From positions 248,001-312,000 of the forward strand of contig NZ_CP086114.1 of assembly GCF_016806835.2 (NCBI RefSeq): 64,000 nucleotides of DNA, given 5' to 3'. How positions within the stretch are numbered: the first letter of the stretch is position 1; each line of letters opens with the position of its first letter. The DNA is from Skermanella rosea. Its GTDB lineage: Bacteria > Pseudomonadota > Alphaproteobacteria > Azospirillales > Azospirillaceae. A program made the position numbers and the translations under genes. Under the pieces are notes generated by a model. The model ran no database searches and was not told where the DNA came from. It was given only the letters and a program-made list of their open reading frames with translations. This document shows, in pieces, positions 46,018 to 53,186 of this stretch.

Positions 46018-46771
46018 TCAACGCTCCGACAGGCTTCGATCGTAAAATTTGCGGACCGTTCCGGGCTTCATGTGCAGGAGATTCCCTGCATCCTGGAACA
46101 GGAGTTGCCCGCTCATCGCGCTGTTCAGGACGGCCCGCGCGAACCGTCTGCCGTTCTTGATCGGAGCGTTTCGGTAGAAGTCGCCTCCACCCGGTTCGTC
46201 CGGGACCTGCCAGCTTCTTCTTTCCTGCTCGAAATAGGCGCGGTATTCATTCCAGCCGATCTTGCCGCAGTCCAGCGCCCGGCGCGCGATGACGACGCGG
46301 CTGACCTTGAAGACTTGCGACAGGGACTGGGCATTCGCGGCAAGGCTCCTGGAGCCGTCCCAAGACTTCATGAGCAGGGCACGGGGCACCAGAACCTCGG
46401 CCGCGATCGCGTTGCAGACCAGTTCGATGTTTCCGGAACCGTCGGTGCGCCGGTCCAGGGCGGGATTCGACACGCCGCTGGCTCCAAGCCAGATATGGGC
46501 GAGTTCATGGGCCAGCGTGAAAGCCTGCGCGGCCTTGGCATCCCGTCCGTTGATGAAGACGATCGGCGCCAACTTGTCCGCGATCGCAAAGCCTCGGAAA
46601 TCCGCTGTGCTGAGGGTGCGATGCGTGTTGCTGCCGACATACCCCGTCCGCATGATCCAGATCCCGGCGTCCTCGCATCTTTCGAAAAGGTCGGCGAGAT
46701 GCTGTTCCCAGGTGCCGTTCCGGCCGGTGCCGGGTCCGATCCCAAGCACGTTGCGCATATCGGCGGCTACC
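46018..46771 (-). pseudogene. C-terminal part of split XRE-ImmA/IrrE metallopeptidase gene
   Basis: This part holds the ImmA/IrrE peptidase domain: zinc motif HELAHIWLG, FAIADKLAPIVFINGRDA, then IELVCNAIAAEVLVP. It begins at AADMRNVLGIG next to the transposon end. The open frame continues upstream to 46926, but those 52 residues are encoded by the transposon's terminal repeat. The N-terminal XRE half is at 52769-53186. Joining the two halves across the 6-bp duplication restores a continuous reading frame (DTPVDTVAADMRNV). Such XRE-ImmA proteins act as protease-type regulators or antitoxins; a TIR-fused short product could still be made. Confidence 0.85.
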
Positions 46772-46938
46772 TGTAGCGGCCCGAGATCGTCGGCGGCCGG
46801 ACCCGAGATTCTGAGCGATTCCGGGACCAGATTGGCTGAGATGGGAAGCGGGCTCTGGCCCACATTCGGTGAGACAGGGCCCGCAGTGTTTGAGACGGAC
46901 CCGAGATCATGGGCGCCGGCCCACAATCCGTGAGACGA
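46772..46938 (+). repeat. Left terminal inverted repeat of the transposon
   Basis: 167 bp, imperfectly matching the inverse of 52596-52762. It contains several spaced copies of a short motif of the form tgagac(g/a)gg followed by a gc-rich block (for example ggtgagacagggccc and tttgagacggacccgag), which look like multiple transposase binding sites, as in Mu/Tn7/Tn552-class elements. Confidence 0.88.
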
Positions 46939-46945
46939 AGTCCGA

Positions 46946-47917
46946 TCAGAGGGGAAGCCCAGCCGCCTGCATCTGCTGGGTAAGCTCCTGCGCCCGGACG
47001 CCGCTCAGCTCTCCCCGCAGGAATTGGCGGATCTCCGCCGGCTTGACGCTGAACTGGTCGGCTAGGGAGCGCACGCTGTAGCCGTGGCGGGTCAGCCGCG
47101 GTTCCAGATCGTCTAGCTGACGGGACAGGATGCTCTCAACCACCTGGACCGTGACCGGCCGGTCACCGATCCGGTACGCCTCCTCGAATGCAAGGGTCAG
47201 ATGCTGCTCGATCTGGAGCGGGGTCTTTAGGCGGCTGGCCAGTAGCTCCACCGCCGCCGTCTCGATCAGCTCGCCGATGTCGATGCCCTCGCCGACGCAG
47301 CGTGCGAGGAGCCAACGGATGTAGGCGAGCTGGTTCCCTGCCATGCCGTCGAACTCGAACACCACCGAGCGGTAACCGATCTCCTCCATTGTCGGACGTC
47401 GAAGGTCGTTCCGAAGCTTGGGGTGGCCCACCAGCACGACGGAGAGCATGCCGCCGCCATCGGCGACCACCTCCATCAACCGCTTCAGCCCAATCAGCGT
47501 CTTGCCGTGCAGGTCGTGTGCCTCGTCAACGAACAGGGCCACCGGCTTGCGGCCGCGCCGTACGAGTTGCTGCAGTTCGCGTTCCCGCTTCTCGCCCAGA
47601 GTTGGGATCTTCGGGTCCTTGTCTGGAGAGAGGTCATGGAACAGCGCAGTGATGAGGGTGGGGATGGTGGTGCGGTCCTTGTCCACCGATAGGCTCTTCG
47701 ACACCGTAACGCGCCCATCGCGGGTCAGTTCGTCCTGGATGCGGCGGAGCAGCACGGTCTTGCCGCTACCGACGACGCCGGCAACCGCCACCAGACGGCC
47801 GACCAGGATGGACGCCTTCACATCCTTGATGAGCTGGCGGTGATGGTCGGTCTCGTAATACCCGGCCATCAGCAGGTCCCGCTCCAACCTGAAATGCTCC
47901 ATGACCTCCGTCAGCAT
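46946..47917 (-). CDS. Transposon AAA+ ATPase (TniB/ExeA-like)
   Basis: A 323-residue AAA ATPase. Walker A is VAGVVGSGKTVLLRR near residue 48, Walker B is VALFVDEAHDLHG, and a sensor region follows in VVLVGHPKLRNDL. The C-terminal 60 residues may be a small helical DNA-binding tail (SVRSLADQFSVKPAEIRQFLRG). By analogy with TniB/MuB it selects and activates target DNA for the transposase. Its start overlaps the end of the transposase gene by 7 bp. It is intact. Confidence 0.88.
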   Translation of the reverse strand: MLTEVMEHFRLERDLLMAGYYETDHHRQLIKDVKASILVGRLVAVAGVVGSGKTVLLRRIQDELTRDGRVTVSKSLSVDKDRTTIPTLITALFHDLSPDKDPKIPTLGEKRERELQQLVRRGRKPVALFVDEAHDLHGKTLIGLKRLMEVVADGGGMLSVVLVGHPKLRNDLRRPTMEEIGYRSVVFEFDGMAGNQLAYIRWLLARCVGEGIDIGELIETAAVELLASRLKTPLQIEQHLTLAFEEAYRIGDRPVTVQVVESILSRQLDDLEPRLTRHGYSVRSLADQFSVKPAEIRQFLRGELSGVRAQELTQQMQAAGLPL

Positions 47918-49562
47918 GCCCCGCCCCCTCCCGTCCGCTGCCTGAAGTACGCCCGCACCTTCGTCAGCACCTCGTCCTTGGCCAAGGTCTCCCGCACCAG
48001 CGCGTCAATCCAGGCCCGGTCCTCGGCCGGCAGCTTCGCCAACGCCAAGCCGATCTCGCCGGCGATCGCGCGCTTGGCCGCGATGATGTCGGGAAAGGCC
48101 AAGGTGCGGTAGGGATCCGGGTCGGTGAACGCCACCTTGGCGGCCGGTGCCGTGACGGGAGGTGGCAGAGGCGAGGTGCCGCCGTCGACCGCCGCGCGCG
48201 GCAGGCCGATGCGTTCTGCCAACTCAGCCACCCGGTCGGCCCGCTCCTCGGATCTGGTCTTCTGGTGCTTGCGGTACTTGTGCAGCGGGATGGGGCCGCC
48301 GACCGGACCGTAGGGGCCATATCGCCGGTCACCGTGCTCGACATAGAGTTCCTGGTCGAATAGTCCCCACCAGAGCACCACATCCTCGCCGGCCAGATCT
48401 GGATCGACTTCGTTGGCTACGCCCTCCACGGTGATGCGGGTGTCGATGCCGACCTTGCGCCGCTCCGGCTCCCGCGCGAAGGCGCAAAACCGGTCCCAGG
48501 CGCACATCTCGCGATAACCCTTCTCCGGTAGGAGCCGCACCCAGTCCTCGATGCGGCTGTGCGGCTCGGAACGGTGATCCTGAGCGTTGTAGCGGACGAG
48601 GTAGCGGCGCAGCCACAGGTTCGCCTCCGCCTCGTCCTGCGGTTCGTGGAAGTGGTAGAGGGTTTCGTGAACGTCCTTGACGGTGCGGAACGGCCGCTCG
48701 ACCTTGCCCTTTGACCGGGCGGTGGTGCGCCGGCCGTCGCCCCCCGCCGGGAGATGGGTCATCACTTTGATGCCGAGGCAGGCCATGACGTTCTGGAACA
48801 CGCGCGAGCGGGTGACCGGACCGTTGTCCATGTAGATCGCTTCGGGGATGCCTTGGAATGGCTGTCCTCCTCGGGCTTGGCGGCCATGGCGTTGTAGAGG
48901 AAGCGCAGGGCCGACTCCGCGTCCTCGCCGTAGACGCACCGGTACTCCTGGTACACGACGCCGCTGCGGTCGTCGGCCACGCTGAACAGCATCAGCGTGG
49001 GTGCTCCCCGGCCGGACTCGATCCAGAGCGGTTGCTTGACGTGCTTCAGGTCCGACGGGCTCATGTCGAACTGCCACAGCTCGTTCGACCGCCGCGCTTG
49101 AAACCGCACGGCCGCCGGCGCGCGGGTCACCCTGGCATACTCCAGCCCCCACACGCGCAGATAGCGGTTGACCGTGGTTTTGTGCAGCGTGCCCGGCGCC
49201 GGCTGCACCAGCCCCTCCGGGGCCTCGACCCCATGCTCCTCCATCAGCCGGATCGCCTGCACCGTCGACAGGTGGCGGCCCTTCTTGTTGGTGGTCCGCA
49301 GCTTCAGGGCGGCGACGATCTCGCAATAGCGCTCCATCTCCGTGGCGGGTATCTTCCGCGGCTTTCCCCGGTCGGCCCGACGAAGGGCCTTGGGCCGAAG
49401 GGATTGCTGAAGGGCGCGGTAGAGGGTGGCGCGGGACACGCCGTAGAGTTCCCTGGCCGACCGCAGGATCTCGGCACGGTCCGGATGACGGGGTGGCAGC
49501 GTGTCCAGCCGGCGGCGCAGATGCACCAGCGCCTCGGCCGGGATCCGCCGCCCGTCACTCAC
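47911..49562 (-). pseudogene. DDE transposase (TniA-like), frameshifted
   Basis: The N-terminal half (49562 to about 48860) has helix-turn-helix segments (YGVSRATLYRAL) and the first catalytic Asp in LWQFDMSPSD. The C-terminal half (about 48860 to 47911) has the second Asp in IYMDNGPVTRS and the Glu in SKGKVERPFRTVKD, then a Mu-type C-terminal beta domain. The halves are in different frames: similarity passes from AAKPEED to FQGIPEAIYMDNG near 48855-48870, consistent with a 1-nt deletion. No A-rich slippery site is seen there, so a mutation (or sequence error) is likelier than programmed frameshifting. The start overlaps the resolvase stop by 8 bp. Confidence 0.85.
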
Positions 49563-50121
49563 CGGCCATCTCCTCGATGTAGGCGTAGAGTGTCGGCTTG
49601 GAGATCCCCATGAGCCGGCAGATCTCCATCACCGTGTGCTTGCGTTCCTGGTAGAGCTGGACGGCGAGCCGGCGTTTGTCGGGGTCCAGCACCTTGCGGC
49701 GCCCGCCCAGCCGGCCGCGGGCCCGGGCTGCGCTGAGCCCGGCCTGGGTGCGTTCCCGCACGAGGTTGCGTTCGAACTCGGCGAGCGCCCCAAACATGTG
49801 GAAGACCAGCCGTCCGCCACTCGACCCGGTATCGATGGCGTCGTGCAGGCTGCGCAGCCCGACGCCGGCGGCATCGAGCCGTTCGGCCAGCTCAATGAGG
49901 TCCTTCAGGGACCGGCCCAACCGGTCAAGCCGCCAGATGACCAGCGTGTCGCCCCGGCGGAGCACGTCGAGCGCGGCGGAAAGACCAGGGCGGTCGGTCC
50001 TGGCACCGCTGCGGCGATCCTCGAAGATCCTCTCGCACCCGGCCCCGCCGAGTGCATCCCGCTGAAGGTGCAGGTTCTGGTCGTCGGTCGATACCCGTGC
50101 GTAGCCGATCAGCATGGGCAA
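49555..50121 (-). CDS. Serine resolvase/invertase (TnpR/TniR-like)
   Basis: A 188-residue small serine recombinase. The catalytic Ser is in IGYARVSTDDQ; RRGDTLVIWRLDRLGRSLKDL carries the catalytic arginines, followed by the E-helix ALAEFERNLVRERT and a C-terminal helix-turn-helix (HTVMEICRLMGISKPTLYAYI). It resolves cointegrates made by replicative transposition at a res site, probably the 50122-50317 region just upstream. First gene of the transposition operon. Confidence 0.93.
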   Translation of the reverse strand: MPMLIGYARVSTDDQNLHLQRDALGGAGCERIFEDRRSGARTDRPGLSAALDVLRRGDTLVIWRLDRLGRSLKDLIELAERLDAAGVGLRSLHDAIDTGSSGGRLVFHMFGALAEFERNLVRERTQAGLSAARARGRLGGRRKVLDPDKRRLAVQLYQERKHTVMEICRLMGISKPTLYAYIEEMAGE

Positions 50122-50317
50122 GCCCCCGGTTCGGCAGGAAACCCGTGGTGCGCGCTCGATACCAGACGATGAAAGACTGACCGGATTCCTTTACCAAATC
50201 GGCGACGGCGCGACGAGACGTCCACGACGACGCAGGCGGAGTAAAGCAAACGGCCGTTTGTTTAACCCGCCCCGCGCTACGCTCCACCGACGAGACGAAC
50301 GGTCCACGAGATAGCGC
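50122..50317. other. Candidate res site upstream of the resolvase
   Basis: 196 bp without a gene between the resolvase start and the passenger LysR end. It contains the perfect 14-bp palindrome caaacggccgtttg (50247-50260) and several gacgag/cgacg steps. Resolvase subsites normally lie next to the gene, so this is the likely crossover region. Subsites were not individually resolved. Confidence 0.4.
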
Positions 50318-51241
50318 CTACGACGCGGTAAGGTGTAGCCATTGGCTAGCCGTGGATTGAACGATCGTGCCCATCCAGTCGATGAAGGCGCGTACCTGCG
50401 GAGCTAAATGTTGCCGGTTGGGATACATGATCGACAGCGGCCAGCGGATGTCGCGCATGGCAGGAACAACTTCCTGGAGGCGTCCGCTGGACAGGTGCTT
50501 TGCGACGACCAAGCCCGGCACCTGGATCAATCCGAGCCCAGCTAGGGCACAACCGACAAATGCCTCGGTATCATTGACCATGATACCGCTGTGCATGGGG
50601 AGATACATGCTCTCTCCGTTTCCCGGTAGTGTCCACGCGACCGGACGATGGCCACGACCTGAGAAGTAATTGACGGCTTGGTGGTGTTTCAAATCCTCGA
50701 TGGTCTCCGGTATTCCGTGAGCCGCAAGGTATGCAGGCGACCCGCATACCACCACCGTCATCCAGGCCAGTTTGCGGGCAACCATGCTGGTCGGCGGCAA
50801 CTCTCCGATCCGCACGACGCAATCGACACCATCCGCGAGCAGGTCAACCGGCTGATCGCTGACGCCAAGAATAAGGTCGATATCAGGGTAAAGTGCCTTG
50901 AATTGGGGTAGCCGCGCGATGAGGAGAGGCTTGGCGAGGGCCACCGGTATGTCCACCCGGAGACGGCCGCATGGAGGCATGTCCGTACCGCCGAACAGAT
51001 TTTGTGCATCGGCGATATCGGTGAGCAAGCGCGTTGCGCGATCGTAGAACAGCTCCCCTTCCCCGGTCAGGCTGATCCGTCGTGTCGTGCGCTGAATAAG
51101 GCGCGCGCCCAGCCCCTTTTCCAAGGCATTGATGGCATTGGTGACGCTCGGCCGCGCCATCAGCAGGGCCTCCGCTGCGCGCGCGAAGCTGCCGTTGTCA
51201 ACCACGGCAACGAAGATGCGGAGCTGCTGGGTAAAGTCCAT
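50318..51241 (-). CDS. LysR family regulator carried by the transposon
   Basis: About 307 residues. The winged helix is at residues 1-65 (FVAVVDNGSFARAAEALLMARPSVTNAINALE, then RLIQRTTRRISLT), and the inducer-binding domain follows. Start 51241 (MDFTQQL) is preferred over an upstream ATG at 51262, which would place the start inside a palindrome. It is divergent from the oxidoreductase gene at 51404 and very probably controls it, the standard LysR-target layout. Confidence 0.92.
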   Translation of the reverse strand: MDFTQQLRIFVAVVDNGSFARAAEALLMARPSVTNAINALEKGLGARLIQRTTRRISLTGEGELFYDRATRLLTDIADAQNLFGGTDMPPCGRLRVDIPVALAKPLLIARLPQFKALYPDIDLILGVSDQPVDLLADGVDCVVRIGELPPTSMVARKLAWMTVVVCGSPAYLAAHGIPETIEDLKHHQAVNYFSGRGHRPVAWTLPGNGESMYLPMHSGIMVNDTEAFVGCALAGLGLIQVPGLVVAKHLSSGRLQEVVPAMRDIRWPLSIMYPNRQHLAPQVRAFIDWMGTIVQSTASQWLHLTAS

Positions 51242-51252
51242 ACGGAGGGTTA

Positions 51253-51262
51253 TTGTTAACAA
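51253..51262. promoter_or_regulatory. Palindromic LysR-type operator
   Basis: ttgttaacaa is a perfect 10-bp palindrome located 12 bp upstream of the LysR start, in the AT-rich divergent promoter between it and the oxidoreductase gene. It has the T-N-A dyad form of LysR boxes. Confidence 0.45.
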
Positions 51263-51403
51263 ATCTCATAACTATCAAGTTCCGATTCGCCGGCTTCCGC
51301 AAAACAATCCTCTGCCTTACATCGCCACTGTCACCAAGCGGCCGGGCCGCTTCCCCCTGTTCAACGCCCACTGAACCACAGCATCCTGAGAAAGGGAAAG
51401 CCC

Positions 51404-52393
51404 ATGACCCGCGTTGTACGCTTTCATGCCTATGGCGATGCCGACGTGCTGCGCATCGAAGACGTCTCGGTGCCGGCACCCGCGGCCGATGAGGTTCAGA
51501 TCGCGGTGCGTGCGATCGGCCTCAATCGGGCAGAGGTGATGTTCCGCAACGGAGCCTATCTGCAGGAGGCATCGTTCCCCTCACAACTCGGCTACGAGGC
51601 CGCCGGCATCGTCAAGACGGTCGGCAGCGGCGTGACCAGCGTCACCGAGGGTGATGTGGTCAGTGTCATCCCGACCCTGGATATGGCGCGCTGGGGCACC
51701 TACGGCGAGATCATCAACATTCCGGCCCGCCACGTCGTCAAACATCCGTCCAACCTTTCCTTCGAGCAGGCCGCGGCCTCGTGGATGCAGTATGTGACCG
51801 CCTGGGGCGCGCTCATCGAACAGGCCAAGCTGACAGCTGGTGATTTCGTCATCGTGACCGCCGCGTCGAGCAGCGTCGGCATCGCCGCCTTCCAGATCGC
51901 GCGCAGCGTCGGTGCGACGGTCATCGCGACCACCCGCACCAGCGAGAAAGCCCAGGCATTGCGTGACGCCGGCGCACATTACGTCGTCGCGACGACGGAG
52001 GAAAACCTGGCCGAGCGGGTGGCGGCGATCACCGGTAGCAAGGGTGCCCGAGTTGTCTTTGATCCGATCGGTGGACCGGCAATCGCGCAGCTCGCCGAAT
52101 GCATGGCAGTCGGCGGTATTCTTCTCGAATACGGCGCGCTCAGCCCTGACCAGGGGCCGTTCCCGCAGTTCGCCGTCCTCGGCAAGAGCCTCACCCTCAA
52201 GGGCTATCTCTACACCGAGATCGTCGGTGACGACGCCGCCCTGGACCGCGCCAAGGCGTTCATCAACGAGGGCCTGAGGACGGGCACACTGCGTCCGCTG
52301 GTCTCCCGCACCTTCCCGTTCGATCGGATCCAGGACGCAACCCGTTTCCTCGAATCCAACGAGCAGATCGGCAAAATCGTCGTCACCCTCTGA
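51404..52393 (+). CDS. Zinc-free MDR oxidoreductase (quinone oxidoreductase-like)
   Basis: A 329-residue medium-chain dehydrogenase/reductase. It has the GroES-like N-terminal domain (GLNRAEVMFRNGAY, LGYEAAGIV) and a Rossmann domain with an AASSSVGIAAFQIARSVGATVIA NADP site. The cysteines that bind catalytic zinc are missing, which points to a quinone or enone reductase and not an alcohol dehydrogenase. ATG 51404 follows gagaaaggga. With the divergent LysR gene it is the cargo of the transposon. It may confer tolerance to a reactive quinone or aldehyde (inference). Confidence 0.9.
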   Translation: MTRVVRFHAYGDADVLRIEDVSVPAPAADEVQIAVRAIGLNRAEVMFRNGAYLQEASFPSQLGYEAAGIVKTVGSGVTSVTEGDVVSVIPTLDMARWGTYGEIINIPARHVVKHPSNLSFEQAAASWMQYVTAWGALIEQAKLTAGDFVIVTAASSSVGIAAFQIARSVGATVIATTRTSEKAQALRDAGAHYVVATTEENLAERVAAITGSKGARVVFDPIGGPAIAQLAECMAVGGILLEYGALSPDQGPFPQFAVLGKSLTLKGYLYTEIVGDDAALDRAKAFINEGLRTGTLRPLVSRTFPFDRIQDATRFLESNEQIGKIVVTL

Positions 52394-52595
52394 TCTGGTA
52401 TGGAGGGCGCGGCCCACCGCGCCCTCCATTCGCTACGCACAAGAACTCCGGCAGCCGCTGCCTCATTGCTGGCCGGAGTGAAGCCCAGCGGTTTCGGCCC
52501 CCAATGAGAAAAACCAGCGGCCTGCCGTTATGGACGTTGAGAGCCGCAGTTCCGCTTCCGGCCAGATCCCCCTCAGGTCAACAAGCTATGGTTTG

Positions 52596-52762
52596 TCGTC
52601 TCACGGATTACGGGCCGGCGCCCATGATCTCGGGTCCGTCTCAAACACTGCGGGCCCTGTCTCACCGAATGTGAGCCAGGGCCCGCTTTCCGTCTCGGCC
52701 AATTCGGTCCCAGAATGGACCAGAATCTCGGGTCCGACCGCCGACGATCTCGGGCCGCTACA
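52596..52762 (-). repeat. Right terminal inverted repeat of the transposon
   Basis: 167 bp, the inverted and slightly diverged copy of 46772-46938. The outermost 25 bases match exactly and the inner 60 or so bases nearly so; the divergence is concentrated about 40-90 bp from the end. It is followed directly by the target duplicate gctacc. Confidence 0.88.
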
Positions 52763-52768
52763 GCTACC

Positions 52769-53186
52769 GTATCGACAGGCGTGTCGATGTCGAACCGCCC
52801 GACGAACGGCCGTTCCTCGGCACCATGTTCCTGAAGGAAGTCGCGGAACCAGTCGAGCTTGAGCATGACGTCGCGGAGAAGGTCCCGCGCATCCGCGCTC
52901 AGTTCCCCGCGCTCAGTTCCTCCGAACGCGCGTCATCGTGCCGGCGCAGATCGGGAATTGGCAATTTCTCTTCAGGCGGTTCGGGAAGGAACAGAAAGCC
53001 GAAGGGCACATGAAGGACCGCGGCGATTTTCTCCGCCTGCCTGAATGTCGGCTGCGAGCCGCCCTCCCCCCAGGCCGTCAGCTTCTCCGGCTTCGTTCCA
53101 AGCTTCTGCGCGAGAACGTCGATGGACAGAGCGACACGTTCACGCGCCCATCGCAACATTTCCGGACTGACCAGGGCCTTGCTCAT
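52769..53186 (-). pseudogene. N-terminal part of split XRE-ImmA/IrrE gene
   Basis: From ATG 53186 it encodes a lambda-repressor-like HTH (MLRWARERVALSIDVLAQKL, KLTAWGEGGSQPTFRQAEKI) followed by the group's PFGFLFLPEPPEEKLPIPDLR linker. The frame then breaks at a 14-bp tandem duplication (52893-52920) and resumes as DLLRDVMLKLDWFRDFLQE. It is cut at DTPVDTVA by the transposon, and the peptidase half lies at 46018-46771. XRE-ImmA proteins of this type often pair with a PIN-like toxin; none is found adjacent. Confidence 0.85.
52893..52920. repeat. 14-bp tandem duplication causing a frameshift
   Basis: ccgcgctcagttcc occurs twice without a gap (52893-52906 and 52907-52920) inside the XRE-ImmA coding sequence. 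Because 14 is not a multiple of 3, the frame stops after SEELSAGN. Removing one copy restores SEELSADARDLLRDV. Confidence 0.88.

What the first reader, a model, noticed from the sequence alone, without database searches (positions are those of the whole stretch)
46772..52762. Intact-ended 6-kb Tni-like transposon splitting an XRE-ImmA/IrrE gene
Both ends are visible: 167-bp inverted repeats starting tgtagcggcccg and the 6-bp direct repeat gctacc. Deleting the element plus one repeat copy rejoins DTPVDTVA to AADMRNV in frame, which proves the insertion point. The gene set (resolvase, DDE transposase, AAA ATPase, no TniQ seen) and a 6-bp duplication differ from classic Tn5053/Tn402 (5 bp), so it may be a separate lineage.
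Basis: partly seen in the sequence, partly recalled or inferred. Interest (0 to 1): 0.72.

Follow-up and report, generated by a model that had tools for sequence, protein, structure and literature searches.

The report
Resolvase-bearing transposon with TA-centred targets
A 6-kb jumping DNA element with three movement genes and two passenger genes has landed inside a regulatory gene of an Azospirillum-family bacterium; it belongs to a widespread, little-described group that inserts at sites with TA in the middle and seems to have an exchangeable slot for passenger genes.

Summary
Confirmed: an element at 46772-52762 has 167-bp inverted ends (153/167 identical) and a GCTACC duplication, and splits an XRE-ImmA gene that is one open frame in Azospirillum sp. 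B510. It is not a Tn402/Tn5053 (Tni) element. It has the Tn552 gene plan (resolvase, DDE transposase, AAA ATPase; 6-bp duplication; long ends) and a transposase that NCBIfam places nearest IS481 (below cut-off). Relatives occur in proteobacteria and cyanobacteria; one is already named ISAzs36. New here: 81 of 81 flanking hexamers of 45 elements have TA in the centre; 16 of 38 elements with both flanks have an exact 6-bp duplication. A palindrome AAACGNNCGTTT, probably res, lies 104-158 nt upstream of the resolvase in 37 of 58 loci. Passengers differ on its far side, and Tn402-type insertions stand beside it in three of three Pseudomonas plasmids where both their ends were seen (six examined). 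This copy's transposase has a 1-nt frameshift, so it probably cannot move unaided. Resolvase-mediated passenger exchange is inferred, not shown.

The parts
46766..46771 (.). target-site duplication GCTACC, ATPase-side copy
   Evidence: NNTANN rule
46772..46938 (+). terminal inverted repeat, ATPase side, with about seven ~20-bp sub-repeats (counted by eye)
46946..47917 (-). AAA ATPase (Walker A GVVGSGKT, VDEAH), TnsC/MuB-like helper
47911..48870 (-). transposase, C-terminal part (second D and E of the presumed DDE triad), different frame
48762..49562 (-). transposase, N-terminal part (presumed first D, motif WQFD)
48863..48863 (.). approximate place of the net 1-nt frameshift against L003 and L006
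49555..50121 (-). serine recombinase (resolvase); ATG of MLIGYARVS at 50115
50248..50259 (.). AAACGGCCGTTT, predicted crossover core of res site I; DNA similarity to L003 and L006 ends at 50259
50318..51262 (-). passenger: LysR-family regulator
51404..52393 (+). passenger: PIG3-type NAD(P)H:quinone oxidoreductase / zinc-type alcohol dehydrogenase superfamily (below the curated cut-off of the PIG3 model)
52596..52762 (-). terminal inverted repeat, passenger side
52763..52768 (.). target-site duplication GCTACC, passenger-side copy
46021..46770 (-). host gene, ImmA/IrrE (Peptidase_M78) part
52899..53186 (-). host gene, XRE (HTH_3) part
52894..52921 (.). 14-bp tandem duplication in the host gene, separate from the insertion

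Best explanation
This is a unit transposon built like Tn552: an IS481-like DDE transposase, an AAA helper ATPase and a serine resolvase, with passenger genes between the resolvase and one end. SHOWN from sequence: both ends, the 6-bp NNTANN duplication, the order end-ATPase-transposase-resolvase-palindrome-passengers-end, repeats in the ends, and a palindrome upstream of the resolvase in most relatives. INFERRED: the transposase binds the ~20-bp repeats, pairs the two TGT...ACA ends and joins them 6 bp apart across a TA-centred target with help from the ATPase; the product is a cointegrate; the resolvase separates it at the palindrome (res). Res also marks where passenger sets differ, perhaps because resolvase can join res sites of two elements. 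This copy has a frameshifted transposase and would need help from another copy; none was found in its genome.
For: Ends, duplication and split gene. In the 80 loci an ATPase match adjoins the transposase in 79 (the exception, L072, ends at its contig edge) and a resolvase match lies upstream in 71. TA at hexamer positions 3-4 in 81 of 81 flanks, while TA at ten other left-flank offsets occurs in 0-3 of 42. Duplication length: 16 of 38 exact at 6 bp; none of the 38 has an exact repeat of another length (3-10 tested) without it. End repeats: 17 of 37 ends (less than 80% alike) have a >=12/14 repeat at 17-25 bp spacing against 0.4% of shuffles. Palindrome: 38 of 58 at >=11/12 (37 of them 104-158 nt upstream) against 34 of 5800 shuffled stretches; 0 of 6 loci with a divergent resolvase (<45% identity) reach 10/12. 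Tn402-type insertions with 5-bp repeats 98-99 nt from the resolvase ATG, and the palindrome (10, 11 and 11 of 12 letters) about 30 bp beyond their far end, in 3 of 3 plasmids where both ends were seen. Structure models: transposase nearest CAST TnsB and IstA; ATPase nearest Cdc6/Orc, then MuB and TnsC. Tn552 plan in print. IS481 target NCTAGN and TGT end in print.
Against: 22 of 38 elements with both flanks lack an exact duplication (many are draft or MAG contigs, cause not tested). 9 of 80 loci show no resolvase match, among them four with both ends seen (L013, L026, L044, L053). 20 of 58 upstream stretches score under 11/12, including seven with a resolvase of 46% identity or more that score only 8 or 9 (L004, L014, L037, L061, L069, L081, L085). 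The palindrome was chosen from some of the same groups and the 58 rows include close relatives. Tn552's p271 is not recognisably close to the ATPase (hhalign E 0.016). Trees have very long branches. The transposase model is moderate (pLDDT 75, pTM 0.55; TM-scores to its best hits 0.3-0.4 by query length). No transposition or resolution was seen; everything is comparative.
Confidence: 0.82

Rival explanations
1. A Tn402/Tn5053 (Tni) family transposon that has lost tniQ.
For: Resolvase, DDE transposase and ATPase are present, with TGT...ACA ends.
Against: 6-bp instead of 5-bp duplication in all 16 exact cases; no TniQ match among the element proteins scanned; TniA and TniB of Tn402 score E 0.006 and 0.003 against the family profiles; Tn402-type elements stand beside the resolvase of members of this group as separate insertions.
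Confidence: 0.04
2. A true member of the Tn552 family, i.e. a Gram-negative branch of it.
For: Same gene set and order and 6-bp duplication, long ends; best single-sequence profile match is Tn552 p480, E 6e-9 and 2e-7 for a second p480.
Against: In the tree, p480 groups with TniA, TnsB and IS481-like rows (fork 95/98), apart from this group; ATPase p271 E 0.016 while MuB gives 5e-5; NCBIfam IS481 model matches 37 of 37 members.
Confidence: 0.3
3. An expanded IS481-type insertion sequence that recruited an AAA ATPase and a resolvase independently of Tn552.
For: NCBI names the B510 relative IS481-like ISAzs36; 37 of 37 match the IS481 model, best E 1.8e-24; TGT ends and TA-centred 6-bp target as in NCTAGN of IS481 elements.
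Against: The bit scores shown lie far under the IS481 model's cut-off (34.4, 37 and 68.5 against 224; for the other members only E-values are shown); only 16 of 81 flanks are NCTAGN; six IS481-model loci of this genome score only 1e-5 to 0.06 against the family profile; the transposase is ~550 aa and 14 of 37 members match Mu-transpos_C_2.
Confidence: 0.45
4. The passenger boundary at res reflects only selection to keep res, with passengers replaced by ordinary insertions, deletions and homologous recombination, not by the resolvase.
For: Core plus res is the functional unit, so any surviving change must spare it; in the Azospirillum pairs the whole palindrome is kept (edge at its outer side); other Sphingomonadales pairs share about 720 bp more beyond res (edges -851 to -865); Pseudomonas edges are explained by Tn402-type insertions.
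Against: Edges lie within 3-40 bp of the palindrome centre in three groups, and in L061 inside its left arm. Left ends are more diverged than right ends in 6 of 6 Azospirillum and Sphingomonadales pairs, but not in the Methylococcaceae pair, and the reverse holds for L071 against L074 and L081, so this is weak.
Confidence: 0.45

Closest known systems
L006, Azospirillum brasilense BR 11026 (unnamed)
   Same: 91.6% DNA identity over 3.49 kb of core, same gene order and ends
   Different: Transposase intact; ATPase match covers only 209 codons; left end starts TAT not TGT; passengers are dehydrogenases and an AraC regulator
Azospirillum sp. B510 pAB510f 107589-112989 (L003, unnamed)
   Same: 88% DNA identity over the core, same ends, same gene order
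   Different: Intact transposase; passengers are a small regulator and ISAzs37; flanks agree at 5 of 6 positions
ISAzs36 (NCBI name for the transposase of the second B510 copy, 'IS481-like')
   Same: Same transposase-ATPase pair: 89% and 96% identical to those of L003
   Different: Resolvase only 36% identical to L003's; next genes are a VapC-type pair; no end pair was found in the stretch examined
Tn552
   Same: Resolvase, p480 DDE transposase, p271 ATPase in this order; 6-bp repeats; long (~120 bp) ends
   Different: p480 only remotely similar; p271 barely recognisable
IS481 family incl. TnRErm46/ISRe46
   Same: TGT end, 6-bp TA-centred duplication NCTAGN
   Different: Transposase of ~333 aa, 20-bp end; no helper ATPase or resolvase described as part of its transposition machinery in the passages seen; CTAG target
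Tn402/Tn5053 family
   Same: DDE transposase, ATPase and resolvase; TGT ends
   Different: TniQ, 5-bp duplication; such elements insert beside the res site of members of this group

Membership tests
Tn402/Tn5053 (Tni) | 5-bp target duplication | tested here: not met
   6 bp here and in all 16 exact cases
Tn402/Tn5053 (Tni) | TniQ | tested here: not met
   No TniQ match among the element proteins scanned against Pfam at E 0.001
Tn402/Tn5053 (Tni) | TniA/TniB homology | tested here: inconclusive
   hhalign E 0.006 and 0.003 with single sequences
Tn552 | gene order resolvase-DDE transposase-AAA ATPase, no TniQ | tested here: met
Tn552 | 6-bp duplication and long inverted ends | tested here: met
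   Tn552 values from PMC3276174 passages
Tn552 | transposase groups with p480 | tested here: inconclusive
   best single match but apart from p480 in trees with long branches
Tn552 | ATPase groups with p271 | tested here: not met
   hhalign E 0.016 for an intact p271; MuB 5e-5
IS481 | NCBIfam IS481 model above its cut-off | tested here: not met
   37 of 37 members match; the bit score shown, L006, is 68.5 against cut-off 224; the window's two pieces 34.4 and 37
IS481 | TGT end and 6-bp TA-centred duplication | tested here: met
   published form NCTAGN; 16 of 81 here are NCTAGN
IS481 | single transposase gene without partner | tested here: not met
   an adjoining ATPase match in 79 of the 80 loci
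Tn7-like | TniQ-type target selector, TnsA | tested here: not met
   neither among the element proteins scanned
any of these | transposition and resolution activity | not testable with these tools
   -

The most novel reading that the evidence does not exclude
A distinct transposon family, filed piecemeal as 'IS481 transposase' plus 'ExeA/AAA ATPase' plus 'recombinase', that joins an IS481-type TA-centred target rule to an AAA-partnered, multi-site-end machine, and whose resolution site acts as an exchange port: passenger genes (and sometimes the resolvase itself) are swapped there, and Tn5053/Tn402 res hunters dock there.
Probability: 0.45. Interest if true: 0.62.

Novelty: new variant of a known kind. 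Interest (0 to 1): 0.5.

Why it matters
AAA-partnered transposons (Mu, Tn7, IS21) are usually described as leaving local target sequence loose (recalled). Here an AAA-partnered element keeps a central TA in 81 of 81 flanks, so target choice by transposase and by ATPase could be separated in one small system. The group is widely spread (799 plasmid records with a transposase match) yet annotated in unconnected pieces. Its res site may also explain why Tn5053/Tn402 elements are found beside these genes.

Tried and rejected
(1) Pseudomonas edges at -144 to -151 looked like a further group of passenger swaps at res. Rejected: in the five records then fetched (H118, H120, H123, H126, H127) and in L004 a Tn402-type end begins 98-102 nt from the ATG, and the edge is the shared part of those ends. 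These records are not counted as swaps. (2) That unmatched flank hexamers mark hybrid elements: within-element end identity did not differ by eye between matched and unmatched cases, so no claim is made. (3) The 3.46-kb extra stretch in L081 near res carries an IS66 transposase. (4) A paper on ISPa40-derived regions (PMC9952335, passages) concerns Tn3-family elements, not this group. (5) The IS481 rows were wrong frames, so that part and that row of the tree mean nothing; repeated with ORFs picked by best match (E 0.003 for L135, the only hit over the IS481 cut-off; 1e-5 and 4e-5 for L140 and L144). (6) L129 carries a quinone reductase near a partial end, but its DNA there does not match this window's passengers. 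(7) Rfam: 0 matches in the window at the gathering threshold. (8) The passenger pair as DNA: no whole match in the family genomes but its own, and 0 of 119 matching plasmid records hold 80% of it.
Full report
Observation. The element at 46772-52762 is real. Its two ends are 167-bp inverted repeats with 153 identical positions, flanked by GCTACC on both sides. They are the only matches to this end reported in the 7.76-Mb genome (40 of 62 candidates scored). The flanking halves belong to one gene: the B510 homologue is a 411-codon open frame (stop to stop) that runs through the insertion point (RTPVEAVAADIRAV against DTPVDTV / VAADMRNV), and L156 does likewise (two more homologues came out in a wrong frame and were not used). 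Of 82 family genomes searched, 12 (this one included) had a match to the ImmA part. The host gene has a second lesion, a 14-bp tandem duplication at 52894-52921.

Gene content. From the ATPase-side end inward: an AAA ATPase with Walker motifs, a DDE transposase, a serine resolvase, then a LysR regulator and a PIG3-like quinone oxidoreductase, then the other end. The transposase is in two frames with a net 1-nt gap near 48863 against L003 and L006. The presumed first D lies in one piece, the second D and the E in the other, so this copy is probably not autonomous. No second copy was found in the genome. Passenger DNA is 61.9% G+C, the core 67.1%, the window 67.8%.

Relatives. The search for related loci confirmed 295 of 357 stretches and kept the best 80, from alpha-, beta-, gamma- and deltaproteobacteria and cyanobacteria among others. 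In the Azospirillum family 5 of 82 genomes matched the transposase profile, G011 only weakly. A class-wide sample of 385 genomes gave 54 matches to the ATPase profile, but only three (G000, G293, G366) at E below 1e-39; the rest are weaker (3e-19 or worse) and look like other AAA proteins. Among plasmids, 799 records match the transposase, 614 over at least 80% of it. By core DNA the nearest are L006 (A. brasilense BR 11026, 91.6%) and B510 plasmid pAB510f (88%). A second B510 copy is named ISAzs36 by NCBI. In the 80 loci an ATPase match adjoins the transposase in 79 and a resolvase match is seen in 71; four elements with both ends (L013, L026, L044, L053) show no resolvase match.

Target rule. 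89 oriented loci were scanned for ends: 47 gave a TGT...ACA pair (45 after dropping L095 and L098, repeats of L003 and the window), 8 gave an inverted pair without TGT...ACA in the range tested, and 34 gave none. Of the 45, 38 have both flanks and 16 of these have an exact 6-bp duplication; none has an exact repeat of another length (3-10 tested) without it. All 81 flank hexamers have TA at positions 3-4; in 42 left flanks, TA at ten other offsets occurs 0-3 times. Collapsed over strands 46 hexamers are distinct; 16 of 81 are NCTAGN and 33 NYTARN. So the 6-bp duplication is a family trait with a strict TA core, not an oddity of this copy. 22 of 38 lack an exact duplication; the cause was not tested. 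IS481-family elements in print duplicate NCTAGN, and TnRErm46 ends in TGT (PMC6794481 and PMC2516522, passages); a review notes TGT/ACA ends in IS481-family elements as in Tn7-like ones (PMC11406308, passages). Tn552 makes 6-bp repeats beside ~120-bp ends (PMC3276174, passages).

Ends. In 37 ends that are less than 80% alike, self-similarity peaks at spacings of 20-22, 33, 40-41, 54 and 61 bp. 17 of 37 have a >=12/14 repeat at 17-25 bp spacing against 0.4% of shuffles. In this window's ends I read by eye about seven ~20-bp units of the type GGCCCACATTnnGTGAGACG. They are probably transposase-binding sites, as in Tn7 and Mu ends (recalled).

Resolution site. AAACGNNCGTTT, often with longer arms, lies upstream of the resolvase. 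The motif was chosen from alignments of some groups, then scored on 58 upstream stretches that are not letter-identical but include close relatives: 38 score >=11 of 12 against 34 of 5800 letter-shuffled ones; 37 of the 38 lie 104-158 nt before the ATG, and L032 is the exception at -13. None of six loci whose resolvase is under 45% identical to B510's reaches 10 of 12, so site and recombinase seem to vary together; but seven loci with a closer resolvase also reach only 8 or 9. In L004 a Tn402-type end stands there; the same is read by eye in L069 and L085. Independent support: in Pseudomonas plasmids L147, L148 and L149, insertions with Tn402-type ends and 5-bp repeats (GGTTG, GCGCG, GGGCG) stand 98-99 nt from the ATG, and the palindrome (10, 11 and 11 of 12 letters) follows about 30 bp beyond their far end. 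In L004, L146 and L150 only the near end was found. Such 'res site hunters' are known from Tn3-family carriers, also between resI and resII (PMC7765201, passages). L147 as a whole is bounded by ends of this group with hexamer GGTAAC.

Passenger slot. In pairs with similar cores and different passengers, similarity stops near the palindrome (centre -133 to -140): Azospirillum 3 pairs at -144, -144, -151, i.e. at its outer side; four Methylococcaceae loci 6 pairs at -150 to -177; Sphingomonadales L061 against 8 others at -136, inside its left arm. Against: other Sphingomonadales pairs break at -851 to -865; Rhodobacteraceae, L069/L085 and most L071 pairs end at -72 to -77; L081 breaks at -33 because of an IS66 element; and many distant pairs end inside genes. 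End-by-end comparison gives weak and mixed support. The resolvase itself is swapped in B510's second copy: transposase 89% identical, resolvase 36%. Passengers seen: chromate transporter (L029), CopZ/MerR genes (L042), RHS (L056), PIN (L048), a YopJ-family acetyltransferase (L039), an ABC-phosphonate-binding / 2-hydroxyacid dehydrogenase / LysR set that looks like a phosphite operon (L074), dehydrogenases with AraC (L006), LysR and quinone reductase (window). Exchange by the resolvase is my inference; selection for an intact res is a fair rival.

Classification. Against a profile of 37 transposases, Tn552 p480 scores E 6e-9, TnsB 3e-8, TniA 0.006, IstA 0.009, MuA 0.18. Six IS481-model loci of the same genome score 1e-5 to 0.06. 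Against the ATPase profile MuB scores 5e-5, IstB 4e-4, TnsC 0.002, TniB 0.003 and an intact p271 0.016. NCBIfam's IS481 model matches 37 of 37, Pfam rve 16 and Mu-transpos_C_2 14 of 37. In the tree a fork (95/98) sets IS481-like, TniA, TnsB and p480 rows apart from this group plus IstA, whose branch is too long to place; the tree holds a wrong-frame IS481 row and its deep fork is weak (78/99). The models resemble CAST TnsB and IstA (transposase) and Cdc6/Orc, MuB and TnsC (ATPase). The safest statement is: Tn552 gene plan, IS481-like target rule, own lineage.

Print. Ten searches of the open library listed no title or abstract that describes this family as such; two searches listed 20 of 30 and 20 of 49 papers, and most listed papers were not opened. 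ISAzs36 appears in two papers; in the one whose passage I read it is a neighbouring transposase (PMC12306178). Subscription papers and ISfinder itself were not searched.

Noticed in passing
L074, L075, L078, L080, L081 (passenger region): An ABC transporter, phosphonate-binding protein, permease, 2-hydroxyacid dehydrogenase and LysR gene set (phosphite-operon-like) carried by near-identical elements in several Rhizobiales genera (only L074's proteins were scanned).
   Followed up: partly
L029, L030, L031, L057: One 7454-bp element with a chromate transporter (scanned in L029), about 99.9% identical, at different NNTANN sites in four metagenome assemblies.
   Followed up: partly
L020-L024: Five 3713-bp copies without room for passengers in cyanobacterium HT-58-2; in two of them the transposase ORF stops after 133 codons.
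   Followed up: no
L147: A 16-kb nested element: this group's ends outside, a Tn5053-type element in its res, and cadR/cation-transporter genes on the ATPase side.
   Followed up: partly
window 52894-52921: A 14-bp tandem duplication in the XRE-ImmA gene independent of the insertion.
   Followed up: partly
plasmid collection (listing): 391 of 799 matching plasmid records are Salmonella, mostly annotated 'IS481 family transposase' plus 'ExeA family protein' in the rows listed; not fetched.
   Followed up: no
L032, L028: The best palindrome match upstream of the resolvase lies at -13 instead of about -130, perhaps because of the start codon chosen.
   Followed up: no
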